The position numbers were made by a program, and so were the translations under genes. Of a stretch of DNA of 64,000 bases, positions 34,103-60,395 are shown one piece after another. Position 1 is the first letter of the stretch; every line of letters begins with the position of its first letter. The DNA comes from Streptomyces adelaidensis (GTDB lineage: Bacteria; Actinomycetota; Actinomycetes; Streptomycetales; Streptomycetaceae): assembly GCF_016598475.1 (NCBI RefSeq), contig NZ_JAEMUX010000004.1:62001-126000 (forward strand), written 5' to 3'. The notes under the pieces were generated by a model. It had not been told where the DNA came from. It did no database searches and saw only the letters and a program-made list of their open reading frames with translations.

Positions 34103-34151
34103 TTCACGTGGGGTGTGGGCCGCAGAGCCCGCAGGTCGGAAGGGGTGGGAC

Positions 34152-37763: not shown

Positions 37764-37885
37764 GGGCGGCGAAGACAGCGCCAACGGCAACGGCGGAGAG
37801 GGGGGAGCCGGCTTCCAGTGACAGATGCTGTCGCGAGGGGTTGACGGCGGTGCGTGTGGCGGTCATCTTCGAAAGCGCATCGTGA

Positions 37886-39863: not shown

Positions 39864-40185
39864 ATGGGACACGGCGCAGACGTCATCGAGGAACTGAAGA
39901 CCGACCACCGAGAGGTCGAAGAACTCTTCGGGAAAAACGAGGAACTGCCTTCCGGAAACCGCCGGCGCAAGGAATAGGCCGACCTGATCACCCTTGAGCT
40001 GGTCCGGCACTCCGTCGCGAAGGAGGCGTACCTCTACCGTCGAGACGCTGAACGACGTCGGCGACAAGGTCCGCCGCGCGGCAAGGACTCCTGAGCCATC
40101 CAAAGGTGTACATCCCACGGCTGACACGCCGGCGGGAAATCCATCGGGGGCCCGATGCTCTCCGCCCGTGCCGCCGGAAAGGTGA
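39864..40185 (+). pseudogene. Decayed hemerythrin (HHE) domain protein
   Basis: Begins with a good ribosome site (GAGGAG) and MGHGADVIEELKTDHREVEE, the start of actinobacterial hemerythrin-like proteins, then meets an in-frame TAG at 39975-39977. Beyond it the same frame continues in homologous form (ADLITLELVRHSVAKEAYLY) to about 40037. The central HHE segment of roughly 60 residues is missing, and the expected C-terminus resumes in another frame (ETLNDVGDKVRRAARTPEPS), ending at 40185. Stop codon, internal deletion and frameshift together make it a pseudogene. Confidence 0.8.
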
Positions 40186-40189
40186 AGTC

Positions 40190-42746: not shown

Positions 42747-42818
42747 GAGCCGAGCCGGGCGTGCCGGTACGCCCGGGTCGGCTCGGTTCCGTACGGGGAT
42801 CGCCTACCGTTGCCCGCC

Positions 42819-43664
42819 ATGAGGATCCTGATCATCGGCGGCAGCGGGTTCCTGGGCGGCGAGCTGGCGCGCCGGGCCAGGGCGGCGGGGCACGAGACGG
42901 CGGCGACGTACGCCACGCGGCCCGGCACCGCCCCGGACGTCCCCTGGCATGCCCTCGATGTCCGGGACCCCGCGCAGGTGACCGGGGTGCTGGCCGAGGT
43001 GTCTCCCGAAGTCGTCGTCAACGCGTCGAGCGGGCAGTCCGACTGGGCGGTCACGGCCGAGGGCGCGGTCCGGGTGGCGATGGCTGCCACCGAGCGGGGC
43101 TGCCGCCTGGTCCATGTGTCCAGCGACGCCGTGTTCTCGGGCGACCGGGATCGCTACGACGAGACGTGCCTCCCCGATCCCGTCACGCCGTACGGTGCCG
43201 CGAAGGCCGCGGCGGAGACCGGGGTCCGGTTGTCGGCCCCGCACGCGGTCGTGGCACGTACGTCGCTGATCATCGGGGACGGCCGCGCCCTGTCCGGGCA
43301 TGAGCGCCAGGTGCACGACCTCGCGGCCGGCACCGTCGACGGAGCGCTGTTCACCGACGTCGTGCGCTGTCCGGTGCAGGTGGGCGACCTGGCCGCCGCA
43401 CTGCTGGAGCTGGCGACGTCCGGGGAGAGCGGTGTGCGGCATCTCGCCGGGCCGGACGCCCTCACCCGTCATGAACTGGGCGTCCTCGTCGCCCGCCGCG
43501 ACGGCCTCGACGCGTCCCTGCTGCCGGCCGGCCGCCGCGCCGACGCCTCCCTCCCAGGGGCACGAAGAGGAGCCATGGACGTCCGGCTGGACTGCCGGGT
43601 GACGCGGCTGGGGCTGCGCACCCGGCTGCGTGGTGCTCGGGAGTTCCTGGCGGAGCGGGCGTGA
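42819..43664 (+). CDS. RmlD-like SDR-family reductase
   Basis: A 281-residue extended short-chain dehydrogenase. The NAD(P) motif GGSGFLGGELARRA is at residues 8-21; HVSSDAVFSGDRDRYDE and the catalytic pair in PYGAAKAAAE (YxxxK, near residue 125) are RmlD-type. The usual annotation is dTDP-4-dehydrorhamnose reductase-like; no other rhamnose genes are near. Its position 211 bp before the acyl condensation genes makes it a candidate for reducing the beta-keto product of the synthase, as an SDR does for mycolates. TACCGT ends 8 nt before the ATG and there is no ribosome site, suggesting a leaderless message. Confidence 0.8.
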   Translation: MRILIIGGSGFLGGELARRARAAGHETAATYATRPGTAPDVPWHALDVRDPAQVTGVLAEVSPEVVVNASSGQSDWAVTAEGAVRVAMAATERGCRLVHVSSDAVFSGDRDRYDETCLPDPVTPYGAAKAAAETGVRLSAPHAVVARTSLIIGDGRALSGHERQVHDLAAGTVDGALFTDVVRCPVQVGDLAAALLELATSGESGVRHLAGPDALTRHELGVLVARRDGLDASLLPAGRRADASLPGARRGAMDVRLDCRVTRLGLRTRLRGAREFLAERA

Positions 43665-43856
43665 AGGGCAGGCCCACGGCATGAAGGTGCCTTCGCCGGA
43701 GTAGGTGACGCCGGGCCGGACACCGGTGTACGCCAGTGACGTGGCCCATACGGCTCACTTGTCACCCACGGACGAACTCCGGTCCCGCAGGACTCAACTC
43801 CCGCAAAGAGAAAGGCGATCGCTCCGGTCGGCCACGAAGGCGCTGCCATATTCGGA

Positions 43857-43875
43857 AGCCACTTCGGAGGTGGCT
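43857..43875 (+). promoter_or_regulatory. Hairpin overlapping the ribosome site of the carboxylase gene
   Basis: AGCCAC (43857-43862) pairs with GTGGCT (43870-43875) directly before the GTG start at 43876. The Shine-Dalgarno GGAGG (43866-43870) lies in the loop and right arm, so folding could limit translation. Confidence 0.4.
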
Positions 43876-45522
43876 GTGACACTAGAGGTGACGACATCCC
43901 GGGCGAGGCGAGTGGCGGAGCGGACGACGACCCGCGCGCCCGACCCGACCGCCGGACCAGCCGGTCAACCGACCGCCGGACCAGCCGGTGAACGGAACGC
44001 CGACCGGACCGCCGACCGCATCACTGATCTGGAAGCCCGCCGGGCCAAGGCGGTCGCTCCCGGTGGGCCCAGGCGGCGCGGTGAGTACGGCGCCCGGGAG
44101 CGGATCGATCTGCTGCTGGACGCGGGCTCGTTCACGGAGACGGGTCTGTTCGTGCGGGCCCGGCCCACCGGGGACGGCGGCCGGCGCCCCTACGGCGACG
44201 GCGTGGTCACCGGGCACGGCACGATCGACGGGCGCCCCGTCTGCGTGTTCGCCCAGGACGCCACGGTCTTCGGCGGCAGCATGGGCGAGGCGTTCGGTGA
44301 GAAGACCATCGCGTTGATGGACCTCGCCCTGAAGACGGGCTGTCCGGTGATCGGGCTCAACGACGGCGGTGGCGCCCGTATCCAGGAGGGCGTCACCTCG
44401 CTCGCCCTCTACGCCGAGCTGGTGCGCCGCAACGTGCGGGCGTCCGGGGTGATCCCGCAGATCTCGGTCGTTCTGGGGCCGTGCGCCGGCGGGGCCGCGT
44501 ACTCGCCCGCCATCACCGACTTCACCGTGATGGTGGAGGGCACCTCGCACATGTTCGTGACCGGACCCGACGTCATCGAGACGGTCACCGGTGAGCGCAC
44601 CAGCGCCGAGGAACTGGGCGGCGCCCGCACCAGCAACACCGTCAACGGCAACGCCCACTTCCTCGCCGCCGACGAGGTGGACGCCCTCGACACCGTACGG
44701 GACCTGCTGTCGTACCTGCCCGTCAACAACCTGGAGCGGCCCCCGCAGTACGCGCCGGGGGCCGCGCCCGACGGGTTGTGTCTGGACGCGGTGGTGCCGG
44801 ACCGGCTCGGGCAGGCCTACGACATGCGGGACATCCTGCGGGCGGTCGTCGACGAGGGTGAACTCCTGGAAATCCAGGAACTGTTCGCGCCGAACATCAT
44901 CTGTGCCCTGGCCCTCGTCGAGGGCACCTCGGTCGGGATCGTGGCCAATCAGCCGCTGCACGCCGCCGGGGTCCTCGACATCGACGCCTCCGAGAAGGCC
45001 GCGCGGTTCGTGCGGTTCTGCGACGCGTTCGGCATCCCGCTGCTGACCTTCGCCGACGTGCCGGGTTATCTCTCCGGCGTCCGCCAGGAGCAGGCCGGCA
45101 TCATCCGGCGCGGCGCCAAACTCCTGTACGCGTACGCCGAGGCGACCGTCCCCAAGGTCACGGTGGTGGTGCGCAAGGCGTACGGCGGCGGGTACGCGGT
45201 GATGGGCTCCAAGCACCTGGGCGCCGACCTCAACTTCGCCTGGCCCACCGCGCGCATCGCCGTCATGGGCGCCGAGGGCGCGGTGGGGGTGCTGCACCGG
45301 CGTGAACTCGCCGCCTCGGCCGACCCCGAGGCGCTGCGCGCCCGCCTGGTCACCGCGTACGAGAGTACGTACGGCACGCCGTACCTCGCCGCCGAGCGCG
45401 GCTACGTCGACGCCGTCATCGCCCCGCGCGACACCCGCGCCCACATCTGCCGCGCCCTGCGCGCGCTGCGCGGCAAGCGCGCCCCGATGCCGGAACGCCG
45501 CCACGGCAACATCCCGCTCTGA
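43876..45522 (+). CDS. Acyl-CoA carboxylase beta (carboxyltransferase) subunit, AccD4/PccB-like
   Basis: A 548-residue biotin-dependent carboxyltransferase. The crotonase-like halves show LNDGGGARIQEGVTSLALYA, VLGPCAGGAAYSPAITDFTV, HMFVTGPDVIETVTGE and the second-half KAYGGGYAVMGSKHLGADLN and AWPTARIAVMGAEGAVGVLH. A 60-residue Pro/Ala/Arg-rich N-terminal extension with a duplicated TAGPAGQP unit is unusual for PccB. GTG 43876 follows GGAGG by 5 nt. First gene of an apparent operon with a fatty acyl-AMP ligase and a Pks13-type synthase, so it probably makes the carboxylated acyl-CoA extender, as AccD4 does in mycobacteria; the biotinylated alpha subunit must come from elsewhere. Confidence 0.88.
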   Translation: MTLEVTTSRARRVAERTTTRAPDPTAGPAGQPTAGPAGERNADRTADRITDLEARRAKAVAPGGPRRRGEYGARERIDLLLDAGSFTETGLFVRARPTGDGGRRPYGDGVVTGHGTIDGRPVCVFAQDATVFGGSMGEAFGEKTIALMDLALKTGCPVIGLNDGGGARIQEGVTSLALYAELVRRNVRASGVIPQISVVLGPCAGGAAYSPAITDFTVMVEGTSHMFVTGPDVIETVTGERTSAEELGGARTSNTVNGNAHFLAADEVDALDTVRDLLSYLPVNNLERPPQYAPGAAPDGLCLDAVVPDRLGQAYDMRDILRAVVDEGELLEIQELFAPNIICALALVEGTSVGIVANQPLHAAGVLDIDASEKAARFVRFCDAFGIPLLTFADVPGYLSGVRQEQAGIIRRGAKLLYAYAEATVPKVTVVVRKAYGGGYAVMGSKHLGADLNFAWPTARIAVMGAEGAVGVLHRRELAASADPEALRARLVTAYESTYGTPYLAAERGYVDAVIAPRDTRAHICRALRALRGKRAPMPERRHGNIPL

Positions 45523-45596
45523 GCCCCCTCCGCGTGCTTGGGCCGCGCCAAGCCCTCTGACCGCAAGCCGTCCCCGCGACGTCAGGAGCCTGCCCC

Positions 45597-47377
<1,781 letters not shown>

Positions 47378-47381
<4 letters not shown>

Positions 47382-50300
47382 AGGCCGTGGGCGAGGGCCG
47401 GGAGGGCGGGCCGCCGGGGCGCAGGGTCGGCGGGGGCGAGGAGAGTGCGCTGCGCCGGATGATCGCCGAGCAGGTGGCCGCGTGGAGCGGTACGGCCGTC
47501 GAGGACGTGCCGATGGACCGGCCGTTCGCGGATCTCGGCATGTCCTCGCGGGACGCGGTCGTGCTGGCCGGGGAACTGTCCCGGGCGACGGGCCGTGAGC
47601 TGCCCGCGACACTGCTGTGGGAGGCGGCCACGGGCGACGCCCTGGTGGCGCGGGTGTGCGGTACGACGGCGGGCGCCGCGCCTGTCGTCCGCGAGGCGCG
47701 TCCCCGGGTCGGGCCCGGCGAACCCGTCGAGCCCGGCGTGACCGGCACCGTGGGCGAGCCCGTCGCCGTCGTAGGGGTCGGCTGTCGGCTGCCAGGCGGT
47801 GCGCACGGCGGTGTGTGCGGCCCGGCGGACTACTGGCGGTTGCTGACCGACGGCGTCGACGCGATCCGGCGGGTCCCGGCGGACCGGTGGCGGGACTTCA
47901 CGCCCTACCCGCCCGCCGACGCGCTCCCGTACGGCGGCTATCTGGACGACATCGCCGGGTTCGACGCGGACTTCTTCCGGGTCACCCCGCGCGAGGCCGC
48001 GGTGATGGACCCGCAGCAGCGGATGCTCCTGGAGGTCGTGCAGGAGACCCTCGACCACGCCGCCGTCCCGGCCGCCTCCCTCGCTGGGACCGCCACCGGG
48101 GTCTTCGTCGGGGTGTCCGCGCCCGAGTACGGGCAGCTCACCGGCGCCGACCCGGCGGCCGTCGATCCGTGGGCGCCGGCCGGCGGGGCGTTGAGTGTGG
48201 CGGCGGGACGGCTGGCGTACGTCCTGGACACGCGCGGGCCGAGCATGGCCGTCGACACCGCGTGTTCGTCGTCGCTGGTGGCGGTGCACCACGCCTGTGT
48301 CAGTCTGCGCACGGGCGAGAGCGATCTCGCGATCGCCGCCGGGGTCAATGTGCTGCTCTCGCCGACCGTCACCGTCGCGTTCCGGCGGGCGGGCGCCCTC
48401 GCGCCGGACGGGCGGTGCAAGCCGTTCTCGGCGGCGGCCGACGGCATCGGACGGGGTGAGGGCTGCGCGGCCGTGCTCCTCAAGCGGCTGTCGGACGCCG
48501 AGCGGGACGGCGACCGGGTACTCGCCGTCGTCCGTGCCACCGTCGTCAACTCCGACGGCCGCTCCAACGGTCTGATGGCCCCCAACCCGGCCGCCCAGCA
48601 GGCCCTTCTGACGACCGCCTACGCGCGCGCCGGTCTCTCCCCCGCGCGCGTCGACCACGTCGAGGCGCACGGCACCGGCACCCCGCTCGGCGACCCGATC
48701 GAGGCGGGCGCGCTCGGCGCCGTCCTCGGCGCGGGCCGCGACCCCGACCAGCCGCTGCTGCTGGGCTCCGTCAAGGGCAACCTCGGCCACCTGGAGTCCG
48801 CCGCGGGCATCGCCGGCCTGGTGAAGACGGTGCTCGCCCTCCACCACGATCTGATCCCGCCCTCACTGCACTGCGTCGAGGGCAGCGCCCTGGACGGCCA
48901 CGTACGGCTGCGGGTCGTGACGGAGGCCGAGCCGTGGCCCCGGTACGGGGGTACGGCCACCGCCGGGGTCTCCGGGTTCGGGTTCGGCGGCACCAACGCC
49001 CACGCGGTGCTGGAGGAGTGGCGGCCCGGCGCCCTGCTGCCGCCCCCGGCCGACGCGCCCCCCGCCCGCCTCCACCTCCTCTCCGACGCCGACACCGCCC
49101 GCGTCCGGGACACCGCCGCCCGCCTCGCCGACTGGCTCGGTACGCCCGAGGGCAGCGCCGCGCACCCCGCCGACGTGGCCCGCACCCTCGCCGGGCGCGC
49201 GGGGAGGGGACCGGTACGGGCCGCCGTCGTCGCCGCTGACCGTGCCGAACTCGCCGACGGGCTGGGCGCGTTGGCGGGCGAGCGCCCCCACGCACGGGTC
49301 GTGACCGGCGACCGTGATCTCGTCGGGCGCGGCCCGGTGTGGGTCTTCTCCGGGTACGGCAGCCAGTGGGCCGGCATGGGGCGCCGGCTGCTGGCCGAGG
49401 AACCCGCGTTCGCCGCGGCTGTGGAGAAGCTCGACGCCCAACTGGCCCCCGAGTGCGGTCTGTCCCTGTACGACCACCTCGCGGCCGGCGGCGACCTCGA
49501 CCGTCTGGAGGTCGCCCAGCCCGTCCTGTTCGGCCTCCAGGTGGCGCTCGCCGAACTGTGGCGCGCGTACGGCGTAGAGCCCGTCGCCGTCATCGGTCAC
49601 TCCCTCGGCGAGGTGGCCGCCGCGGTGTGCGCGGGCGCGCTGGAGGTGCCGGACGCGGCCCGCGTGGTCGCCGTACGGGCCCGGCTGCTCAGCGGGCTGC
49701 GCGGCGGGGCGATGGCGGTCGTCGACCTCGACGACGACGAACTCGACTTCCTGGAACGGGACTTCCCCGGCGTGCATGTCGCCGTGCACTCCTCCCCCGG
49801 CCAGAAGGTGGTCACCGGGGAGGAGGAGGCGGTGGCCCGGCTCGTGCGCCGACTGGAGGGGGAAGGGCGGGCCGCACGTGCGATGCGGGTGGTCGGGGCG
49901 GGCCACTCCCCTCAAGTCAAGCCGCTGCTACCGGAGTTGGCCGACTCCCTGGCGGACATCCGGGGTGTCCTGCCCCGTATCCCCGTCTACTCCACCGTCC
50001 TGGACGACCCGCGCGGCGAGGGTGTCTTCGACGCCGCGCACTGGGTGGCGAACCTGCGGCGGCCCGTCCGGCTGGACCGTGCCGTCGCCGCTGCCGCCGC
50101 CGACGGGCACACCGCCTTCGTCGAGCTGTCGCCCCACCCGGTCCTGACCCGGGCCATCACCGACACCGCCCCCGGCGCCCTCGCCGTCGGCACGCTCCAC
50201 CGCGACGCCGACGGCTCCGCCGGATTCCTCACGCGGCTGGGCACCCTCTACACCGCCGGCCTGCGCCTGCCGCTGCCGCCCGGCCGCGTCATCGACCTGC

Positions 50301-51868
50301 CCGCGCCGCGCTGGCGGCACGTCCGGCACTGGTGGACGGACGGGCGGGGGGCGGGAGGCGCGGGGACGGACCCGTCGAGGGTGCCGGTGGACGCGGCGGG
50401 CGCGGGGAAGGCGGTGGGCGCGGTGGAGGCGGTCCACGGCTCGGCGGGGGGCGATGCGGTGGCCGAGGACGCCTCGGTCTCCGCCCGTCTCTGCCACCAC
50501 ATCGCCGCCGTCACCGGGCATCCGCCGACCCGCGTCACCCCGGCCACCGCCTTCGCCGAACTGGGCCTCGACTCCCTGATGGCCGTCCGCATCCGCGCCG
50601 CCCTGGAACGCGAGTTCGACATCGAGCTGCCCCTGCGCGACCTGCTGGGCGCCGCCACGGTCGAGGACACGGCGACGCGCATCGAGCGGGCGATGCCGGT
50701 ACGGACGCCTAGCGCCCAGTCGCCTTCGCAGGCCGCACCCGCGACGGCCGAGGACGACCGACAGGCACCACCGACGAGGCCGGCTCCGGCCGGAGACATC
50801 CAGCTCGCGCCGCCCACCAAGGCGTCGGCCCGGGACACGCCGTCGGGAACCCCCCGGCCGCCGGACGAGGACTCCCCGCCGCGCCCACCGCGAGCGATCG
50901 GCGAAGCCGCCCTCCCCCAACCGCCACGAACCATCGGCGAAGCCGCGCAGCCACAGCCACAGCCGCCACCGGCGATCGGCGCGAACTCCTCACCGCATAC
51001 CGAGAGGACGCCGGGCGAGGGCTCCCCGCTCCGGGCCCCTCACACCACCGGCTCCCATCCTTTCCTCCGCTCCCTCCACCCCACCGGCACCCGTCCCCCG
51101 CTCTTCCTCGTCCACGCCGCCGGCGGCACGACCGACGTCTACCGGGCCCTCGTGGAACGGCTCGGCGCGGAACGGCCCGTGTACGGGCTGGAGCGGCTCG
51201 CGGCGGCCCGTACGGTCGCCGAGAAGGCGCGCCGGTACGCCGAGGCGGTCGCCGCCGTGCATCCCGACGGGCCCTGTCTGCTGGGTGGTTGGTCCTTCGG
51301 TGGCTTCGTCGCGCAGGAGACCGCGCGGCAGCTCACGGCCGCCGGGCGGGACGTGCGGCTGGTGGTGCTCATCGACTCCGTACGGCCCCTCACCCGGCCC
51401 GATGTCACGCCGGGCGACCGGATCCGCGCCCACTTCACGGGCTTCGCCCGCCATGTCGCCGACGCGTACGGGGTCGAACTGGAGTTGCCGTACGACGAGT
51501 TGGCCGCGACCGAGGACGACGGTGAGCGGATCGACGTCGTGCTGCGGGCGCTGCGGGAGGCGGCCGAGGTGCCGCGGGCCGCCCTCGATCATCAGCGGTC
51601 CTCCTATCTGGACCTGCGGATCGGCGAGGCCCACCGGCCGGGCCGCCACGACGGGCAGGTGGTCCTGTACCGGGCCGGCGAGAGCGCGCCGCACACCGTG
51701 CGGGACCCCGCGTACGAGCGGGACGACGAGGCGCTCGGCTGGGACGAGGTGTGCCCGAACCTGGCCGTCGTCCGGGTCGTGGGGCACCATCTGTCGCTGC
51801 TCGACCCGCCGTACGTCGACGAGATCGCCGCCCATCTGCGGTGGGAGCTCGCCGACGAGAACCGCTGA
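47378..51868 (+). CDS. Pks13-type condensing polyketide synthase (ACP-KS-AT-ACP-TE)
   Basis: A 1496-residue type I synthase with the rare domain order of mycobacterial Pks13. N-terminal ACP: FADLGMSSRDAVVLAGEL, phosphopantetheine serine at S56 or S57. KS (about 128-550): C296 in DTACSSSL, histidines in EAHGTGTPLGDP and GNLGHLES. AT (about 640-960): S742 in GHSLGEVAAA, with GYGSQWAGMGR upstream. Second ACP: S1066 in LGLDSLMAVRI. A proline-rich linker (1110-1225) leads to a thioesterase with S1306 in GGWSFGGFVAQE and H1470 or H1471 in VVGHHLSLLDPPY. No KR, DH or ER is present, so the product should be an alpha-alkyl-beta-ketoacyl chain made by one Claisen condensation. Follows its acyl-AMP ligase with ATGA overlap. 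Confidence 0.92.
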
Positions 51869-51890
51869 ACCCGAGCCGAGGAGAGCCGCC

Positions 51891-52910
51891 ATGTCCGACC
51901 CCACCACCGCGATGTCCCGACGCGCCGTCACCAGGACGGCGGCCGCCGCCTCTCTGGCCGCCCTGTTCGACGCCGCCGCCACCGGCACCGCCGGAGCGGC
52001 CGCCATGACGCGAGCGACCACGGGCCGGGCAGCCACCACCGGAGCCGCCGCCACGCGAACCGTCACCACACCGACCGTCACCCAGCTCGGCCCCCGCACC
52101 CTCGACGTCTCCCTCCCCTCCGCCGCGCTGGGCCGCAGTGCGCCGGTGCGGCTGGTCCTCCCCTCCTCCTTCGCCACGCAGCCCGGCCGGACGTACCCCG
52201 TGCTGTACCTCCTGCACGGCGCCCACGACGACTACACGTCGTGGACCCGGGAGACGGACATCGTGGCGTTCACCGAGGGCCGGGAGCTGATCGTGGCGAT
52301 GCCGGACGCGGGGCCCACCGGGATACCCACCGCCTGGCGCAGCGGCCCCGACTACGAGACGTTCCAGCTCAGCGAGGTCCCGGCGCTGCTCACCCGTGAC
52401 TACCGGGCGTCCGGCGTCCGCGTCGTCGCCGGTGTCTCCACCGGCGGCTACGGGGCGATGGCGCACGCCGCTCGCCATCCGGGGACGTTCGCGGCGGCGG
52501 CCTCGTACAGCGGCATCCTCGACACCACCGCCCCCGGCGTGCCGACTCTGATGGACGCCATCGTGGCCCGCGAGAACCTGGCGGCGCTGTCCCTGTGGGG
52601 CAACCCGATCCTGAACGCGCTCACCTGGCGCGACTTCAACCCCAGGGCCCGCGCGGCGGGGCTGCGCGGCACCGCCCTGTACGTGTCCAGCGGCAGCGGG
52701 GTGGTGGGCGGCAGCGGCGACTGGCTGCCGGAGGCACTGGAGAGCGCGCTGTGGCCGTCCGCCCACGCGTTCGCCGACACGCTCGCCCTGCTGGGTGTCC
52801 GGGCGACCACCCACTTCTACGCGGGAGGGGGACACAGCTGGGCGTACTGGAAGCGGGAGTTCGGCGCGTCGTGGCCGATGCTCGCCGGTGCGCTGGGGGT
52901 GCCGGCGTGA
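51891..52910 (+). CDS. Tat-exported antigen-85-fold esterase/acyltransferase
   Basis: A 339-residue exported alpha/beta-hydrolase of the esterase D/antigen 85 family. The signal is twin-arginine (MSRRAVTRTAAAASLAALF). The fold shows YPVLYLLHGAHDDYTSWTRE, the nucleophile S183 in AGVSTGGYGAMAHAA and catalytic H315 in GGGHSWAYWKREF, which closely parallels the HSWEYW end of mycobacterial Ag85. Those enzymes transfer mycolic acids between trehalose and cell-wall sugars. It starts 22 bp after the Pks13-type synthase with GAGGAGA upstream, so it is in the same operon and probably handles the synthase product outside the cell. Confidence 0.88.
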   Translation: MSDPTTAMSRRAVTRTAAAASLAALFDAAATGTAGAAAMTRATTGRAATTGAAATRTVTTPTVTQLGPRTLDVSLPSAALGRSAPVRLVLPSSFATQPGRTYPVLYLLHGAHDDYTSWTRETDIVAFTEGRELIVAMPDAGPTGIPTAWRSGPDYETFQLSEVPALLTRDYRASGVRVVAGVSTGGYGAMAHAARHPGTFAAAASYSGILDTTAPGVPTLMDAIVARENLAALSLWGNPILNALTWRDFNPRARAAGLRGTALYVSSGSGVVGGSGDWLPEALESALWPSAHAFADTLALLGVRATTHFYAGGGHSWAYWKREFGASWPMLAGALGVPA

Positions 52911-53032
52911 GGCCGGTACCGTCCGGGCACGGAACGGAGCGCCAGGGACGTGCGTCCAACCCAGGACTTGTCCCTCGCCCCACGGGCACCGGCCCTCGGG
53001 TGAGCCGCTTCCGGGTGAAAGGAGGGTCCGCC

Positions 53033-54313
53033 GTGGCTGCCCCCACACCGCCGCACGGCGTACCGGACGGTCCCGGCACTGCCTCTGTCGCCACCCCTGT
53101 GCCGCCCGAACTCGCCAAACTGCTGCGCGATCAGCTGGCGGTCGTCGCCGACGAGGTGGAGGAGGAGGTGCGCAGACAGGTACCGGAGTACTCCCGCCCG
53201 GCCGACGCGACGTATCGCGCCCGCCTCAGAGCGGGGGTCGTCCAGGCGCTCACCCTGTTCGTCGACCACATCGCCGATCCGCGCGGCCAGGGCGCCGCGA
53301 TCACCGCGACGTACTACGAGATCGGGCGCGGCGAGGCCCTGGACGGCCGGGGCCTGGACGCGTTGCAGTCCGCGTTGCGGGTCGGGGGTCTGCACGCCTG
53401 GCGGCTGATGGGCCGTACGGCGGAGGAACTGGGCCTGGACTCCTCGGTCGTGGCCGCGCTGGGCGAACTCGCGTTCCAGACGGTGCACGAGGTCGCCGAG
53501 GCGGCCGCCGCCGGCTACGCGGAGGCTCAACTGCGCAACACGGACGAGCTGGAGCGGCGGCGCGCGCGGCTGCTCGATCTGCTGCTGGCCGAGGGGCCGG
53601 TGTCCCCGGAGGCCGTGCAGGACATGGCGCACGCCGCCCGCTGGTCGGTGCCGAGGCAGGTCGCGGTCGTCGCGCTGGCGGCGAGCCCGGACCAGCGGGA
53701 GGCGGACCGGCCGTTGGCGGCGGCGGGGGCGCTGGTGGACATGGAGTCCCGGCCGCCGCGGATGCTGGTGCCCGACCCGGACGGTTCCGGCCGTTTCGGC
53801 GGCCGGGCGTTCACCCTCGCGCTGCGCGGCCGGCCCGCGGCGATCGGCCCCACGGTCCCGCTGACGGAGGCCGCCCGTTCGCTGCACTGGGCCATCCGGG
53901 CGCTCGGCCTGATGGGGCGCGGCGTCCTCCCCCGGCAGGGCGTGGTGCGCTGCGCCGACCATCTGTCGACGCTGCTGCTGCACAGCGACGAGCCGATGCT
54001 CGACCAGCTCCGGTCACAGGTGCTGGCCCCGCTGGACGCGATCGCGGAGGGACCGCGCGGCAGGCTCGCCGAGACCCTGCTGGCGTGGCTGCTCGGCGGC
54101 AGCAACGTGCCCGACGTCGCCGCCCGTCTCCACATCCACCCGCAGACGGTCCGCTACCGCCTGCGCCAGCTGGAGAAGCTCTTCGGTGACGCCCTGCACG
54201 ACCCCGGCACCCGCCTGGACCTCATTCTCGCGCTGCGCGCGGAGGCGCTTCGGGATTCGCTCCCGCTCACCTCGGCACAAAAACCAGAGGAATTCCTGAA
54301 TTCCCGTCCATAA
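53033..54313 (+). CDS. PucR/CdaR-type transcriptional regulator
   Basis: A 426-residue regulator. The N-terminal 180 residues form a helical RsbRD-like sensor region (LLRDQLAVVADEVEEEVRRQ, ADATYRARLRAGVVQAL), a central GGDEF-like PucR linker follows, and the C-terminus has the PucR helix-turn-helix GGSNVPDVAARLHIHPQTVRYRLRQLEKLF, of which the last part is diagnostic. GTG 53033 is preceded by AAAGGAGG. It lies 122 bp after the antigen-85-fold gene and just before the cutinase gene on the same strand, so it probably regulates this locus. Its last codons carry a perfect inverted repeat (54289-54304). Confidence 0.88.
   Translation: MAAPTPPHGVPDGPGTASVATPVPPELAKLLRDQLAVVADEVEEEVRRQVPEYSRPADATYRARLRAGVVQALTLFVDHIADPRGQGAAITATYYEIGRGEALDGRGLDALQSALRVGGLHAWRLMGRTAEELGLDSSVVAALGELAFQTVHEVAEAAAAGYAEAQLRNTDELERRRARLLDLLLAEGPVSPEAVQDMAHAARWSVPRQVAVVALAASPDQREADRPLAAAGALVDMESRPPRMLVPDPDGSGRFGGRAFTLALRGRPAAIGPTVPLTEAARSLHWAIRALGLMGRGVLPRQGVVRCADHLSTLLLHSDEPMLDQLRSQVLAPLDAIAEGPRGRLAETLLAWLLGGSNVPDVAARLHIHPQTVRYRLRQLEKLFGDALHDPGTRLDLILALRAEALRDSLPLTSAQKPEEFLNSRP
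54289..54304. promoter_or_regulatory. Inverted repeat upstream of the cutinase gene
   Basis: GGAATTC-CT-GAATTCC has perfect 7-bp arms in a GC-rich setting, at the end of the regulator gene and 90 bp before the cutinase start. It may be an operator for the cutinase promoter, within the coding sequence of its putative regulator. Confidence 0.4.
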
Positions 54314-54393
54314 CACTCGGTCCGACAACGCGAATACCTTCGGGACGTCCTTTTCCACAGGCGCTCCACGCGCCCCACCCTCAAAGGATCCCC

Positions 54394-55035
54394 ATGCGTA
54401 TCCGCTTGTGCCTCGCCGCGCTCTCACTGGCCGGCGGGGCCGGACTGGCCACCGTCTCGGCCCCCACGGCAGCAGCCGCTGCCTGCACGGACATCGACGT
54501 CGTCGCGGCTCGCGGCACGTTCGAGCCGGGCACGCTCGGCTTCATCGTCGGCGACCCGGTGTATTCCGCCCTGCAGAAGAAAATCACCGGGAAATCCCTG
54601 TCCAGCTACAAGGTGAACTATCCGGCCGACCTTTCGCTCACGTCGGCCGCGCAGGGAAACTCCGACCTGGTGAACCATGTCACGAGCCAGGCTTCGGCCT
54701 GTCCGAACCAGCGTTTCGTGCTCGTCGGCTATTCGCAGGGCGCGAATGTCGTCGACAACTCCATCGGTATCAGCAGCGCCGGCGCGGTGGTCGGCAGCCC
54801 CATCGTGGCCACGATTCCGGCCGCGCTGGAGCCGAGGGTCGCCGCGGTGCTGCTGTTCGGCAATCCGATCCGGGCCATCGGCAAGAGCGTGACCGGCACC
54901 TACCAGAGCCGCACCATCGACTTCTGCGCGGCCGGTGACCCCGTCTGCGAGAACGGCGGGGGCGACGTGGGCGCGCACCTCGGCTACACCGCGAACGCGG
55001 ACGCGGCGGCGGCCTTCGCCGCGACCAAGGTCTGA
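54394..55035 (+). CDS. Secreted cutinase-family lipolytic enzyme
   Basis: A 213-residue exported serine hydrolase. The Sec signal (CLAALSLAGGAGLATVSA) ends at TAAAAAC. The nucleophile is S114 in LVGYSQGANVVDN; the aspartate is in DFCAAGDPVCENGGGD and the histidine in VGAHLGYTANADA. Three disulfide-prone cysteine pairs are kept. It groups with the actinobacterial cutinase-like family, in which mycobacterial Rv3802c sits next to fadD32-pks13. AAAGGA lies 6 nt before the ATG. Base use (AAAATCACCGGG, TATTCG) is less GC-biased than the neighbours. The IS element begins 38 bp after its stop. Confidence 0.9.
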   Translation: MRIRLCLAALSLAGGAGLATVSAPTAAAAACTDIDVVAARGTFEPGTLGFIVGDPVYSALQKKITGKSLSSYKVNYPADLSLTSAAQGNSDLVNHVTSQASACPNQRFVLVGYSQGANVVDNSIGISSAGAVVGSPIVATIPAALEPRVAAVLLFGNPIRAIGKSVTGTYQSRTIDFCAAGDPVCENGGGDVGAHLGYTANADAAAAFAATKV

Positions 55036-55130: not shown

Positions 55131-56873
55131 TCAGTCTCTGGCGGACCGCCAAGACCTCGGCCGGGTGATTCCGTGCTGGTCCAGGTAGTTCTGGAAGGCG
55201 GTCGGCGGCCGGGACGGAGGTGCTTCTCCGGCCGGCGGCCGTCGGCTGAGGCGCTCGATGTTTGCGGCGATGGCCGTGAACACGTGCTGTAAGTGGGCTT
55301 TGTGCTGTCCCCGGTAGCGGCAGCGACGCATGCCGTGTCCGTGGGCGAGCTCGTTGATGGTGCCTTCCACTCCGGAGCGGACCGCATAGCGGGCCTGCCA
55401 TTCGGATGTCTGCTGCTCGGCACGGACGCGGAGCTGCAGGTCACGGAGTTCTCGCGGGGGAAAGCCCACGCTCCGGGCGCTGTCGGCGGTGGTCGTGCAG
55501 CGGGTGCGGACCGGGCAGGGACGGCACTGGCTCTTGGTGAACCGTGCCACGATCAGAGGCGCCGCGATGGGCGAGGAGGTCGGATAGGGGCCGTGCCATC
55601 CCGCGCTGGTCTCGCCCTGCGGGCAGGTGACCTGCCGGCGGTCGAAGTCGATGTGGAAGTCGTCGCGGCCGAAACCGTTGTTCCTGCGGTTCTGGCGGGC
55701 GGTGTTGACCGGCAGTGGTCCGGTGACCGTGACCTGGTGTTCGCGGGCCGCCTGTTCCAGATGGACCAGGGAGGTGTAGCCGCCGTCGACCAGGTGCTCG
55801 GCGGGCAGCAGACCGCGGTGCTTCAGCCGGGTGTGGATGCCGGGCAGAGCCTTCGCGTCGTAGCTGGTGGCGTCGGTGGTCGCCACATCCGTGATCACGT
55901 TGACGCCGTCGGGATCACAGGTCTCGGTGAGATGCGCGACGAACCCTTTCCAGCGGGTGACGTGTCCGCGGCGCGCGTAGCGGGCCGTCGGATCGTAGGG
56001 CGAGACGACTGCGACGGCCGAGGGCGGCAGGCCGCCGTCCTCGGCGGTGCGCCAGCGCAGGCGGCCGACCCCGTCGCGGTAGTAGTTCTGCACCATGATC
56101 TGCCGCAGAGCCTGGACGCAGGGACCGGACAGGCGTTCCGGCCCGTGCTGCCCGAGGTGCTCGATCAGCCGGACGGCGTCGCCTCCGGTGGCGAGGATCC
56201 TGGTCTTGGGGCGGGTGGGGTTCTTGCCCAGACGGACCGGGCGGCCGTAGCGGCGCCCCCACTCCTCGTCGACCAGGCCGGCCAGCAGGTGCGGAGCTGC
56301 GCCGGCCAGTTCTTCCAGCGCGGCGCGGACGGCCTCGGTGACCAGTTCCAGCCGGGTCAGGTCGCGCACTGCGGCCAGGACGTGGGTGGAGTCCGTGCGC
56401 CGGGTGGTGCGCTCGCGGACGAGACCGGCCTCCTTCAGGCGCGCGAGCGCGAGGTCGAGGAGACGGTCGGCTCGGCCGTCCTCGGTGAGACGGTCGCGGA
56501 AGTCGGCCAGCACGCTGTGGTGGAAGCCGGGATCGTCCAGTTCCATGGCCAGCGCGTACTTGAAATCGATGCGGCAGCGAACCGCTTCGGCCGCCTGCCG
56601 GTCCGACAGACCAAGGAGGAACTGGAGCACGCAGACGGTGGCCAGCTGAGCGGGCGAGAGACCCGGACGGCCATCACGCGGATACCAGTCGGCGAAGTCC
56701 TCGTCCCGCCACAGCCCGCCCAGGTGGTCTCTCACCCACATCGCCGTCGTACCGCCCGGGTTGCTCGCCCGTGCCATCCGCACAGTCGAAGAAGGGACTT
56801 GCTCACCAGAACGGGCGTGGAGCGACAACGGGCACCTCGACAACTGCATCGGCCTTTGAACAGAGCCGAGCAT
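55131..56873 (-). CDS. IS1182-family DDE transposase
   Basis: A 580-residue transposase, full length for the family. The N-terminal DUF772 domain shows [20 protein letters not shown] and [20 protein letters not shown]. The catalytic domain includes [14 protein letters not shown] (first Asp), [16 protein letters not shown] (second Asp) and a C-terminal [20 protein letters not shown] (Glu) region, so the DDE residues appear intact. The cysteine cluster [13 protein letters not shown] may bind zinc. No frameshift is seen. The ATG at 56873 is the first in frame inside the element; a later start at the MQLSR methionine is possible. Confidence 0.88.
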
Positions 56874-56981: not shown

Positions 56982-58703
56982 TTACTCGGGAGCCCGCGCG
57001 AACTCCGTGAGACCCGTGGAGACGGGCTCGGGGCGGCCGTTGTTCTGGGTGGGCGCGGCGGTCAGCACGTCGAGGTGCTGGTAGCCGTCGGCGACGACGG
57101 GGTCGAGGTCGGCCGGGACCCGGCCGGCGAGCAGTCCGTCGCCCGCGAGCACGGTGAGCGTCGGGTTGGCGGTGAGCCCGTCCGGGTGGACGACGAGGCG
57201 CTTCACCTGGGGCGAGGTGGCGAGTTGGAGGTCGGTGACGAGCTTGGTCGGGAAGTACTGCTCGGTGAAGTCCAGCGGCTGCTGGGCCATGCTGCGGGCC
57301 AGTTCCTGGATGTCGGTGACCTCCTTGCCGGCGTCGGTGAACGGCGTCCCGTCGGCCGACCGGTACCCGGGGTCGTCGGGATCGCCGACGCGGTCGTAGT
57401 TGCGCCAGGTGTAGAGCGGGCCGTGCGGCTGGTCGGGGATGGCCTTGTACTCGCCGCCGAACAGCGCCGGTTGCTCCTCGCCGCCGTTGGCGACGGGGAA
57501 GTTCTTGTCGACGATCGGCCCGCCGTCGTAGAAGCCCACGCTGCTCTGCAGGAAGGCGAGCGGCACGGAGTGGTCGTCCATGAGCGCGCCGAGTATCGCC
57601 TCGTTGGTGAGCCGGAAGTCCTTCACCGCCGGTGAGCCGGTGAGGAAGGTGGCGGTGTCCTCGGAGAACAGGAAGCGGTTGGTGGCCTCGATGTTGGTGT
57701 TGAGGGGCAGGTAGCCGGGCAGATCGGCCTCGCCGCCGGGGTCCTGTACGGCGCCGAGGCCGGCGATGGCCAGCAGGGTCATGGTCTCGGGGTTGAGGAG
57801 CACCGGCGCGGACAGCGAGCGCGGCACTACTCCGCTGTCGAGCCCGGCCTGCACGACGCCGTAACCGAGGCCCACGTCGGGCAGGTTGGTGTCGTCCGGG
57901 ATGCTGCCGCTGAGGTCGGCGAGCGAGGTGGAGACGGTGGTGTCGAGGGCGAAGTAGCCGGCGCACTGGTTGTGTCCGGCGTCCGCGGTGGTGGCGGGGT
58001 CGCCGTCGAAGTCGGCGGTCGCGAAGTACCCGGTGACGACTCCGCCCAGGGAGTGCCCGCCGCACAGCACCTTCTCCTCGCGCATCCGCTGGTCGGGCAA
58101 CTCGGCGGTGAGCAGGTCGTACTGGTCGCGGACGGTCCGCTCGATGCCGAGCTTCGCCATCCACCCCAGCTCGCCGTCGCCGACGTATCCGGCGAAGGTG
58201 CGGCCCTCGACCTGCTTGCCCCGGTAGTAGTAGTCGACGGCCGTGTGCTGGTCGCCGGAGGCCACGCCGGTGCGGTCCTCCAGGCAGTTGGAGCGCCGGT
58301 CCAGGGCCCAGAACTCGATGTGCCGGCCCTGTTCGGCGGCGCGGGCGACGGTGTTGCGGGCGACGCTGTCGAACGCTCCGGCGCCTTCCAGGATGCCCGG
58401 CTGGGCGACGAGGACACGGTCGGCGTCGGCCGAGGCCGCCGGTCCGTCGGCGGCTCGGTAGCGCAGGTACGACAGCCAGTCGCACGCCGCCGGCCGCGCC
58501 CCGAAGGACGCGGGCAGCGGCGACTTGACCCGCACCATGGTCTCGGTGACCCCGCTGACGGGGCTCGTCGACGACACGGCCGTCTCGGTGCGCGCGTCCG
58601 CGCCCCGGGCGTCCGGGACGGCCCCGGTGAACGCCCCGACGGTCAGCAGCGCCGCCACCGCGGTGGTGCGGCACGTTCCTGTTCTGCTGCGACTCATGTT
58701 CAT
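56982..58703 (-). CDS. Secreted alpha/beta-hydrolase (lipase-like), substrate unknown
   Basis: A 573-residue exported protein. A signal peptide (TAVAALLTVGAFTGAVPDARG) precedes a lipase-like alpha/beta-hydrolase core: RVLVAQPGILEGAGAF with a strand-turn start, the nucleophile serine in VLCGGHSLGGVVTGYF near residue 212, and a likely histidine in VVADGYQHLDVLTAAP near the C-terminus. Size and sequence suggest an actinobacterial extracellular hydrolase group that I cannot name. ATG 58703 is supported by TACCGT ending 6 nt upstream, which again suggests a leaderless message. The IS sits 27 bp after its stop, so the gene is probably undamaged. Confidence 0.75.
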   Translation of the reverse strand: MNMSRSRTGTCRTTAVAALLTVGAFTGAVPDARGADARTETAVSSTSPVSGVTETMVRVKSPLPASFGARPAACDWLSYLRYRAADGPAASADADRVLVAQPGILEGAGAFDSVARNTVARAAEQGRHIEFWALDRRSNCLEDRTGVASGDQHTAVDYYYRGKQVEGRTFAGYVGDGELGWMAKLGIERTVRDQYDLLTAELPDQRMREEKVLCGGHSLGGVVTGYFATADFDGDPATTADAGHNQCAGYFALDTTVSTSLADLSGSIPDDTNLPDVGLGYGVVQAGLDSGVVPRSLSAPVLLNPETMTLLAIAGLGAVQDPGGEADLPGYLPLNTNIEATNRFLFSEDTATFLTGSPAVKDFRLTNEAILGALMDDHSVPLAFLQSSVGFYDGGPIVDKNFPVANGGEEQPALFGGEYKAIPDQPHGPLYTWRNYDRVGDPDDPGYRSADGTPFTDAGKEVTDIQELARSMAQQPLDFTEQYFPTKLVTDLQLATSPQVKRLVVHPDGLTANPTLTVLAGDGLLAGRVPADLDPVVADGYQHLDVLTAAPTQNNGRPEPVSTGLTEFARAPE

Positions 58704-59464: not shown

Positions 59465-60241
59465 TCAGGCGCCGATCCTGCCGACGCCCGCCCCGGCCCG
59501 TACGAGGGCGGGGACATCTGCGGTGGGGTCCAGCGTGTAGGCGTAGTAGGTGCGGGGCTCGGTCACCGTGCCGTTGGTCTCGCAGGTGCCGGAGCCGGTG
59601 AAGAGGTTGTTCCGCTGCACCAGCCGGCCCGGCCCGGAGGCGTCGTAACCGCTCGCCGAGTAGCAGGGTTTGGGGACGCCCTCGAAGTGGTTGCCCTCGA
59701 CGACGACGCCCGCGTCCATGGTCGACGCGACGCCGTAGACGGCGTTGCCCTTGAAGTCGACGAACTCGTTGTGGTCGATCCAGATGTGGTGCGACTCCTG
59801 GCCGACGTTGACGGCGTCGTCCTCGGCGGCGGTGAACCTGATGTTCCGCACGATGACGTTGTACGAGCGGTAGAAGTCCAGGCCGCCGTTGATGACGGCC
59901 GACGAACCCACGCCGATGATCGTCTTGTCGGGGCGGACACCCTGCTTGCTGGTGATGTCGATGGTGCCCTGGACCCGGATGACCAGCGGGCCCGTGGTGT
60001 CGATGTACTCCAGGAACTGCTCGGTGGTGGTGGCGGTCACGGTCGCACCGGCGGCTCCGCCCGTGGTGCCGTTCTGCCCGAGGGCGTTGACGGCGGCGAA
60101 GCCCGTGGGGGACGTCTCCGCCTGCGGCGCCGCCTGGGCCCGCGGCGCCTCCTCCGCCCCTACGGGAGCGGTCGCGGCGAGCAGCAGGGCGAGGGTGAGC
60201 GCCGGAACGCCGTGTGCGGCGCGGGACAACGACGAGCTCAT
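59465..60241 (-). CDS. PL1 pectate lyase with catalytic core deleted in frame
   Basis: A 258-residue exported protein that reads as family PL1 at both ends: signal peptide, FAAVNALGQNGTTGGAAGAT, KTIIGVGSSAVINGGLDFYR, IWIDHNEFVD at the front, then VYGVASTMDAGVVVEGNHFE, RLVQRNNLFTGSGTCETNG and YTLDPTADVPALVRAGAGVG at the back. Between WIDHNEFVD and NAVYGVASTMD, complete PL1 enzymes carry about 70 residues with the calcium-binding aspartates and the catalytic arginine (RHPRVRFG-type segment). These are missing while the frame is kept, so the protein should lack lyase activity. It might still bind pectin. Good ribosome site (GGGAGG). Confidence 0.8.
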   Translation of the reverse strand: MSSSLSRAAHGVPALTLALLLAATAPVGAEEAPRAQAAPQAETSPTGFAAVNALGQNGTTGGAAGATVTATTTEQFLEYIDTTGPLVIRVQGTIDITSKQGVRPDKTIIGVGSSAVINGGLDFYRSYNVIVRNIRFTAAEDDAVNVGQESHHIWIDHNEFVDFKGNAVYGVASTMDAGVVVEGNHFEGVPKPCYSASGYDASGPGRLVQRNNLFTGSGTCETNGTVTEPRTYYAYTLDPTADVPALVRAGAGVGRIGA

Positions 60242-60305
60242 GTGGTTCCTCCCGGGTCGAGTGGGGGATCTTCCGGGCCGTACGAGAACGGGAGCACAGA
60301 GACTA

Positions 60306-60317
60306 GAAAGCGCTTTC
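60306..60317. promoter_or_regulatory. LacI-type operator between the PL1 and GH30 genes
   Basis: GAAAGCGCTTTC is a perfect palindrome with the central CG of LacI-family operators, 64 bp before the PL1 start and 79 bp before the GH30 start, so it may control both divergent genes. Confidence 0.65.
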
Positions 60318-60395
60318 AGTTTCGTGAATGCTAAGCAGGTGTTTTGGGCATGTCAACGAAATCTCGTCGGCCTCTGTGTTGTGGAAGGGAGTGTC

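What the first reader, a model, noticed from the sequence alone, without database searches (positions are those of the whole stretch)
42819..55035. Mycolate-type condensation locus (accD-fadD32-pks13-Ag85-cutinase) in a streptomycete
Seen: consecutive genes for an acyl-CoA carboxyltransferase, a fatty acyl-AMP ligase, an ACP-KS-AT-ACP-TE synthase, an Ag85-fold exported esterase, a PucR-type regulator and a cutinase. Known: the same gene types form the accD4-pks13-fadD32-Rv3802c-fbp locus that makes and transfers mycolic acids in Mycobacteriales. Streptomycetes are not known to have mycolic acids. Inference: the locus makes a short or unusual alpha-alkyl-beta-hydroxy or beta-keto fatty acid and attaches it to a secreted or surface acceptor, a system I do not know to be described.
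Basis: partly seen in the sequence, partly recalled or inferred. Interest (0 to 1): 0.95.

Follow-up and report, generated by a model that had tools for sequence, protein, structure and literature searches.

The report
Mycolate-type lipid machinery in Streptomyces
About one in eight of the Streptomyces genomes sampled carries a conserved gene cluster related to the machinery that builds and transfers the waxy mycolic acids of tuberculosis-type bacteria, although Streptomyces is thought to lack such acids; the cluster likely makes a related branched lipid, still unidentified, that would be attached to something outside the cell.

The parts
43705..45522 (+). acyl-CoA carboxyltransferase (AccD/PccB-like beta subunit); start codon uncertain
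   Evidence: PF01039 605 bits; PDB best PccB 693 bits; pocket residues Val/Ala instead of Phe/Asp; in place in 64 of 64 loci
45597..47381 (+). fatty acyl-AMP ligase, sister to FadD32
   Evidence: NCBIfam FadD32 521 bits under cut-off 975; tree clade with FadD32 99/98*; 64 of 64 loci
47378..51868 (+). Pks13-like synthase, ACP-KS-AT-ACP-TE, no reducing domains
   Evidence: Pfam; Pks13 best NCBIfam and PDB match; KS and AT trees; catalytic motifs present
51891..52910 (+). exported Ag85/PS1-type esterase, probable acyltransferase; N-terminal stretch with twin Arg
53000..54313 (+). PucR-type transcription regulator; start uncertain
   Evidence: PF13556; 61 of 61 loci
54394..55035 (+). secreted cutinase, orthologue of S. 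scabiei Sub1
   Evidence: PF01083 141 bits; 90% identical to the L023 cutinase, which carries both sub1 primer sites; 60 of 60 loci
56982..58703 (-). conserved convergent neighbour, secreted alpha/beta-hydrolase-like protein with a GGHSLGG motif, function unknown
   Evidence: present in 55 of 59 loci; Abhydrolase_5 only at E 0.06, below cut-off; sequence

Best explanation
[quoted passage not shown] Proposed steps, all inferred from homology and residues: (1) the AccD, with biotin-carrier and small subunits from elsewhere in the genome, carboxylates a medium- or long-chain acyl-CoA to an alkylmalonyl-CoA; (2) the FAAL activates a second fatty acid as acyl-AMP and loads it on the first ACP of the synthase; (3) the AT loads the alkylmalonyl unit on the second ACP and the KS joins the chains by decarboxylative Claisen condensation; (4) the TE releases the alpha-alkyl-beta-oxo chain onto a carrier alcohol, as Pks13 does onto trehalose; (5) an unlinked exporter, perhaps an MmpL protein, moves the ester out; (6) the secreted Ag85-type enzyme transfers the chain to a surface glycan, glycolipid or protein; (7) the secreted cutinase trims or recycles the esters, besides the action on cutin and suberin shown for Sub1. 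No reductase is in the Streptomyces core, so the chain may stay beta-oxo or be reduced by an unlinked enzyme. Shown here: gene content, kinship, conservation, catalytic motifs. Predicted: the esterase fold. Inferred: every chemical step.
For: Pks13 is the best NCBIfam model (1164 bits, next 979) and the best PDB match for the whole protein (806, next 659) and for the TE alone (148, next 71). KS tree: window, Streptomyces, long type and Pks13 on one side, 97/74; AT tree 98*; FAAL tree with FadD32 99/98*. AT motif GAGH in 13 of 13 Streptomyces rows, GASH or GAGH in 16 of 16 Pks13 rows. AccD pocket Val/Ala in 63 of 63 Streptomyces-type rows, Gly/Ala or Ser/Ala in 37 of 37 mycolate rows (4 genomes counted twice), Phe with Asp, Ile or Tyr in 4 of 4 own-genome paralogues; PMC5187497 ties loss of Phe and Asp to chains longer than C4 (passages). 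Esterase: PS1 best by sequence, mycoloyltransferases best by fold, triad conserved. Cutinase beside the esterase in 38 of 38 genomes. Catalytic motifs intact in the window. Relatives carry KR in 6 of 6 long synthases scanned and MMPL genes in 7 of 13 loci.
Against: No chemistry is shown. Synthase and FAAL fall below the Pks13 and FadD32 cut-offs and outside those clades. KS clade support is not starred (97/74) and the inner order is open. AccD is closest overall to PccB. The named FadD32 and FadD23 chains score alike against the FAAL in the PDB (408 and 405). The GAGH motif also occurs in an Embleya hybrid synthase outside the family (L011). No reductase or exporter lies in the Streptomyces locus; the MmpL3-like score of relatives' transporters is not specific, since an unlinked Streptomyces MMPL scores likewise. 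No PF04602 arabinosyltransferase in the genome. Eleven of 295 Streptomyces genomes hold only a weaker esterase homologue (about 39-60% identity) whose context was not examined, and one f18 genome with the synthase has no esterase match at 1e-10 (G562).
Confidence: 0.62

Rival explanations
1. The locus is a secondary-metabolite cluster: the same condensation gives a diffusible lipid (free beta-oxo acid, its ketone, a surfactant or signal), and the exported esterase and cutinase are hydrolases that mature or degrade it, with no attachment outside the cell.
Against: The esterase is nearest to mycoloyltransferases by sequence and fold and the whole enzyme set matches mycolate loci.
Confidence: 0.2
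2. The locus belongs to plant-polyester use: Sub1 and the esterase release fatty acids from cutin or suberin, and FAAL and synthase turn them into a lipid that helps contact with the polymer.
For: The cutinase is the orthologue of Sub1, which degrades cutin, suberin and PET (PMC7104285, abstract and passages); carbohydrate-active genes surround the window locus and several are shared with S. scabiei.
Against: The cutinase goes with the esterase orthologue in 38 of 38 genomes across the genus sample, a 68% identical cutinase lies near two Amycolatopsis loci, and the surrounding CE2 gene is in only 7 of 68 loci; mycolate loci also carry cutinase-family genes.
Confidence: 0.08
3. The extender is methylmalonyl-CoA, so the product is an ordinary 2-methyl-3-oxo fatty acid and not a two-chain lipid.
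For: AccD is nearest to propionyl-CoA carboxylase by score; Val rather than Gly at one pocket position.
Against: The Phe and the Asp or Ile of the short-chain paralogues are both replaced; the AT motif is the Pks13 type and not VASH or YASH (that these mark methylmalonyl ATs is recalled); the genome already has a PccB-like paralogue, 64% identical, with Phe and Asp.
Confidence: 0.06

Closest known systems
Mycolate condensation/transfer locus of Mycobacteriales (AccD4, FadD32, Pks13, Ag85/Myt, cutinase-family gene; seen annotated in Rhodococcus ruber L012 and Tsukamurella L094)
   Same: Same enzyme types side by side; same ACP-KS-AT-ACP-TE order; same AT motif type; small residues in the AccD pocket; Ser-Glu-His acyltransferase
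   Different: Sister lineages, below Pks13 and FadD32 cut-offs; AccD closer to PccB overall; different gene order; PucR regulator and Sub1-type cutinase; no arabinosyltransferase found; found outside mycolate bacteria
MccB acyl-CoA carboxylase and alkylmalonyl-CoA extender pathway (stambomycin; PMC5187497)
   Same: Ala at the Asp position and loss of the Phe that limits chain length; same PccB-like background
   Different: Val instead of Gly at the Phe position; feeds a single-module Pks13-like synthase and not a modular macrolide PKS. The paper mentions a cryptic single-module cluster with an MccB homologue widely conserved in Amycolatopsis, which may be the long form seen here
S. scabiei Sub1 suberinase (PMC7104285) and BGC 27a 'unknown' (PMC8914351)
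   Same: The same locus in S. scabiei: Sub1 is its cutinase and SCAB_78961 by gene order its synthase
   Different: Neither passage seen connects the cutinase with the synthase or with mycolate-type genes
Lipstatin and nocardiolactone pathways (recalled, no call)
   Same: Also make alpha-alkyl-beta-hydroxy acids from two acyl chains
   Different: Recalled to use stand-alone thiolase-like condensing enzymes, with no ACP-KS-AT-ACP-TE synthase and no Ag85-type transferase

Membership tests
Pks13 | domain order ACP-KS-AT-ACP-TE without reducing domains | tested here: met
   Pfam scan; catalytic motifs
Pks13 | passes the NCBIfam Pks13 equivalog cut-off (2100 bits) | tested here: not met
   1164 bits, though best of all models
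Pks13 | KS falls inside the Pks13 clade | tested here: not met
   the 16 Pks13 rows form their own clade 100/100*; the window lies in a wider clade with them, 97/74
Pks13 | makes an alpha-alkyl-beta-oxo acyl chain and transfers it to trehalose | not testable with these tools
   needs enzymology
FadD32 | passes the NCBIfam FadD32 cut-off (975 bits) | tested here: not met
   521 bits; two generic FAAL models score 560 and 556
FadD32 | groups with FadD32 and not with other FAALs | tested here: met
   clade 99/98* with FadD32, apart from 20 other FAAL rows; three other FAALs of mycolate genomes fall inside it beside FadD32
Mycoloyltransferase (Ag85/PS1) | fold | tested here: met
Mycoloyltransferase (Ag85/PS1) | Ser-Glu-His triad | tested here: met
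   13 of 13 Streptomyces rows align S, E and H with the mycolate enzymes; triad of MytC as in PMC11927696
Mycoloyltransferase (Ag85/PS1) | falls among the enzymes of mycolate bacteria in a tree | tested here: inconclusive
   two sides of a 100/99* branch in an unrooted tree; one long-branched row of a mycolate genome (L194) lies on the locus side
Mycoloyltransferase (Ag85/PS1) | acyl transfer activity | not testable with these tools
   needs enzymology
AccD4-type long-chain carboxyltransferase | closest relative is AccD4 | tested here: not met
   PccB 693 bits; the 9t97 chain labelled D4a, taken as AccD4, 516
AccD4-type long-chain carboxyltransferase | pocket lacks the Phe and Asp of short-chain enzymes | tested here: met
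   Val/Ala in 63 of 63 rows; mycolate rows Gly/Ala or Ser/Ala; own paralogues Phe with Asp, Ile, Tyr, Tyr
mycolyl-arabinogalactan envelope | EmbC-type arabinosyltransferase (PF04602) | tested here: not met
   0 matches in the own genome; Corynebacterium glutamicum control rings
Sub1 suberinase | orthologous to the S. scabiei gene cloned as sub1 | tested here: met
   annealing parts of both sub1 primers occur once each in the L023 cutinase gene; window protein 90% identical, same place in the locus

The most novel reading that the evidence does not exclude
Mycolate-type lipids exist outside the mycolic-acid bacteria. About one Streptomyces species in eight, and many Pseudonocardiaceae and Streptosporangiaceae, build two-chain alpha-alkyl fatty acids with a Pks13-FadD32-AccD engine and mount them outside the cell with an Ag85-type transferase. 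In Streptomyces the chain stays beta-oxo, so the usual alkaline work-up turns it into ketones and the test for mycolic acids misses it. The mycolate pathway of tuberculosis-type bacteria would be one specialised branch of this wider actinomycete system.
Probability: 0.4. Interest if true: 0.96.

Novelty: new variant of a known kind. Interest (0 to 1): 0.86.

Why it matters
Mycoloyltransferases are described as specific to Corynebacteriales (PMC11927696 passage). A full condensation-and-transfer set in Streptomyces and in other non-mycolate families would make the origin of the mycomembrane directly testable, explain an uncharacterised but widespread actinomycete locus, give harmless soil bacteria in which to study Pks13-, FadD32- and Ag85-type enzymes, and place the suberin- and PET-degrading enzyme Sub1 in a lipid pathway. 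It also suggests why such lipids could have been missed: unreduced beta-oxo chains break down to ketones in alkaline hydrolysis (PMC2568869 passages).

Tried and rejected
Rejected: (a) 'unrelated lipopeptide or polyene synthase': in the KS, AT and FAAL trees the modular, hybrid and other FAAL rows lie elsewhere. (b) 'Decayed remnant': catalytic motifs are intact in the window, and 57 to 62 of 62 long Streptomyces frames match each motif; the few misses were not examined one by one. (c) The RmlD/SDR gene 42810-43664 as a built-in ketoreductase: matched in 2 of 68 loci. (d) The PvdQ-like acylase 40106-42673 as a part: no match in 68 loci. (e) 'The MmpL beside relatives is specifically MmpL3-like': an unlinked Streptomyces MMPL scores MmpL3 as well (195 bits, against 160), so I do not use it as evidence for a TMM-like cargo. 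(f) Streptomyces type as the exact sister of Pks13, or Pks13 outside all the others: neither is rejected (p 0.39 and 0.077); branching order left open.

Led nowhere or needs care: the model of the 573-aa neighbour was too poor to search (pLDDT 39). One search scanned some mechanical ORFs that are antisense to likelier genes (for example 34104-37790 and 60303-63122, minus); their lack of matches means nothing. One search cut AccD frames wrongly (25 fragments); the counts used are. I had labelled L148 as outgroup before seeing the KS tree; it fell inside and was so treated. The two esterase misses are artefacts of its rule: L039 ends with its contig, and in L077 the esterase is present but the best synthase segment ended early. 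The trees used 13 of the 68 Streptomyces-type loci plus the window; L005 gave no AT row. The 37 mycolate AccD rows count four genomes twice. The Fisher value (9e-45) ignores the relatedness of the genomes. Group codes f4, f17 and f18 are read as Mycobacteriaceae, Streptosporangiaceae and Pseudonocardiaceae from their company in the trees; no call names them. The identity of PDB 5d6j as a FadD32 and of 5inf/5ing as MccB is recalled. That VASH, YASH and HAFH mark methylmalonyl or malonyl ATs, and that streptomycetes lack mycolic acids, is recalled. The homologue list was not used further.
Full report
WHAT IS THERE. The window is part of a 9.32 Mb draft genome whose nearest rows in the trees are Streptomyces (S. 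canus, S. caniscabiei, S. scabiei). On the + strand lie, in order, an acyl-CoA carboxyltransferase (43705-45522), a fatty acyl-AMP ligase (45597-47381), a synthase with ACP-KS-AT-ACP-TE order (47378-51868), a PF00756 esterase (51891-52910), a PucR-type regulator (to 54313) and a cutinase (54394-55035). FAAL and synthase overlap by ATGA, and the esterase ATG follows the synthase stop after 22 bases. A transposase (55131-56873, minus) separates the cutinase from a convergent secreted protein (56982-58703). No match to the transposase was found in 68 Streptomyces-type loci, while the secreted protein is in 55 of 59, so the insertion is peculiar to this genome among those examined.

KINSHIP OF THE SYNTHASE. 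The best NCBIfam model is Pks13 (1164 bits; equivalog cut-off 2100), the next PKS model scoring 979. Among solved structures Pks13 is first for the whole protein (806 bits; next MAS 659, EryA 632) and for the thioesterase alone (148 bits; next 71). A KS tree of 63 rows puts the window, the Streptomyces rows, a 'long' type from other actinomycetes and Pks13 on one side of a branch (97/74; 98/84* with one more f4 row), away from modular synthases, three of them of the same genome. The 16 Pks13 rows form one clade (100/100*) among the others. The AU test does not settle the inner order: holding Streptomyces plus long type together without Pks13 gives p 0.077, holding Streptomyces with Pks13 alone p 0.39. 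The AT tree agrees (98*, quick method). The AT motif is GAGH in 13 of 13 Streptomyces rows and 14 of 17 long rows, GASH or GAGH in 16 of 16 Pks13 rows, and something else in 13 of 15 outgroup rows; of the two exceptions L148 belongs to the family by the trees, and L011, an Embleya hybrid synthase, does not.

THE LIGASE. Its first PDB matches (438 bits) are labelled acyl-CoA synthase and are FadD32 by recall; the first chains named FadD32 and FadD23 score alike (408 and 405), so that ranking alone decides little. The tree does: in 56 rows the window, Streptomyces, long-type and FadD32 rows form a clade (99/98*) apart from 20 other FAAL rows, including six of mycolate genomes and the other FAAL of its own genome; three further FAALs of mycolate genomes fall beside FadD32. 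It is not FadD32 itself: 521 bits against a cut-off of 975, with two generic FAAL models at 560 and 556.

THE CARBOXYLTRANSFERASE. Overall it is closest to S. coelicolor PccB (693 bits), then to 5ing/5inf (664; MccB of the stambomycin pathway by recall), AccD5 (601) and a chain taken as AccD4 (516). Its first PDB hit, 3ibb, is the D422A mutant of PccB (so named in PMC5187497), in keeping with an Ala at that position. [quoted passage not shown] In my alignment the locus AccDs have Val/Ala in 63 of 63 Streptomyces-type rows and Gly/Ala in 4 of 5 long-type rows (Val/Gly in the other); mycolate-locus AccDs have Gly/Ala in 35 and Ser/Ala in 2 of 37 rows (four genomes counted twice); four paralogues of the same genome have Phe with Asp, Ile, Tyr and Tyr. 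PMC7835884 (passages) finds that the Asp/Ile position is an important but not the sole determinant. I infer an extender longer than methylmalonyl.

THE CUTINASE IS SUB1. The annealing parts of both primers used to clone sub1 of S. scabiei (PMC7104285, methods passage) occur once each at the ends of the cutinase gene of the S. scabiei 87.22 locus L023; with the primer's own stop codon the reverse primer does not match. The window protein is 90% identical. Sub1 hydrolyses cutin, suberin and PET (PMC7104285, abstract and passages). PMC3388780 names SCAB_78931 as an extracellular cutinase (passage), and PMC8914351 lists SCAB_78961 as the gene of BGC 27a, 'Unknown', not responsive in that study (passage). 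That SCAB_78931 is Sub1 and SCAB_78961 the synthase follows from gene order and locus-tag steps, not from a record I could open. The own genome has one PF01083 match, this one.

CONSERVATION. Of the 80 loci kept (162 candidates; the best 80 are returned), 68 are Streptomyces-type. On contigs long enough to tell, FAAL and AccD are in place in 64 of 64, esterase in 61 of 63 (both misses are artefacts of the rule), PucR in 61 of 61, cutinase in 60 of 60. Of 295 Streptomyces genomes 38 hold the close esterase orthologue (71% identity or more). A strong cutinase (E below 1e-36) is in 41 of the same 295: in all 38, each 1.5 to 3.3 kb downstream on the same strand, and in 3 others.

RELATIVES BEYOND THE STREPTOMYCES TYPE. 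The other 12 loci (one of them Wenjunlia, a streptomycete family member) plus Nonomuraea L010 have a longer synthase. Pfam on six of these 13 shows KR in all six; DH is clear in Saccharopolyspora (two) and Amycolatopsis, weak in Planomonospora and Streptosporangium, and not matched in Nonomuraea. FAAL, AccD and esterase all lie within the fetched flanks in L080, L082, L083, L085 and L089; L092 lacks an AccD match; the Streptosporangiaceae loci carry the esterase divergently beside the synthase, with a FAAL about 10 kb away in one genome. MMPL genes lie in 7 of the 13 loci and in none of the 68 Streptomyces-type loci, within about 10 kb; the own genome has several MMPL genes elsewhere. A cutinase 68% identical to the window's lies near two Amycolatopsis loci. 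Pks13 over its cut-off occurs in 34 of 394 genomes of the class, all in family code f4; 21 more genomes match at 1e-250 below the cut-off, 18 of them f17 or f18, and the KS tree shows that several of those are not members. This search understates the Streptomyces type, whose match is split into pieces. Annotated mycolate loci of Rhodococcus and Tsukamurella show the same five enzyme types with one or two cutinase-family genes.

HOW IT LIKELY WORKS. Pks13 chemistry is known: FadD32 loads one chain on the first ACP, the AT loads a carboxylated second chain, the KS condenses them, and the TE moves the alpha-alkyl-beta-oxo chain to trehalose (PMC11649247 passages). Each of these parts has a counterpart here with its catalytic motif. 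No reductase is in the Streptomyces core. Loss of the mycobacterial reductase does not stop the pathway: beta-oxo chains are still esterified to trehalose and the wall, and are lost as ketones in alkaline hydrolysis unless first reduced (PMC2568869 passages). A beta-oxo end product is therefore plausible and would escape a work-up of that kind. The acceptor is unlikely to be mycobacterial arabinogalactan, because no PF04602 match is in the genome. Product, acceptor, export and the part played by the cutinase are inference.

NOVELTY. The enzyme types are known. Their joint, conserved presence in non-mycolate actinomycetes did not turn up in my searches (listings only, in an open-licence library that lacks most subscription journals). 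Pieces are in print: Sub1, BGC 27a 'Unknown', and a remark on a cryptic single-module cluster with an MccB homologue widely conserved in Amycolatopsis (PMC5187497 passage), which may be the Amycolatopsis form. I call it a new variant of a known kind: it fails the membership tests for Pks13 and FadD32 proper, but resembles them in the features that could be tested.

Noticed in passing
55131-56873 (-): DDE transposase gene between the cutinase and its conserved convergent neighbour; no match in 68 Streptomyces-type loci.
   Followed up: partly
56982-58703 (-): Secreted 573-aa protein with a GGHSLGG motif and no Pfam or NCBIfam family, beside the cutinase in 55 of 59 loci; perhaps a further lipid hydrolase. 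Structure model too poor to use.
   Followed up: partly
54394-55035: Orthologue of Sub1, an enzyme reported to act on PET: 41 of 295 Streptomyces genomes hold a strong cutinase match, a pool of candidate polyesterases.
   Followed up: no
L084:390-4388, L085:4757-6763; also L087, L088, L089, L090, L010: MMPL-family transporter genes near the long-type locus in Streptosporangiaceae and Amycolatopsis.
   Followed up: partly
L080:6527-7774; matches in L083, L085, L089: Secretory lipase family (PF03583) gene near the Pseudonocardiaceae loci.
   Followed up: no
40106-42673 (+): Penicillin-amidase family protein, best NCBIfam PvdQ acylase below cut-off (586 of 950 bits), just upstream of the locus but with no match in 68 Streptomyces-type loci.
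   Followed up: partly
15916-39064 and 59889-63605: Carbohydrate-active genes around the locus: GH38, two GH3, a CE2-type esterase, a GH30-type xylanase; several are also beside the S. scabiei locus.
   Followed up: no
34113-37763 (+): 1216-aa protein with WGR and DUF4132 domains, function unknown.
   Followed up: no
32773-34011 (+): PhyH-family dioxygenase; an 85% identical gene lies beside the S. scabiei locus.
   Followed up: no
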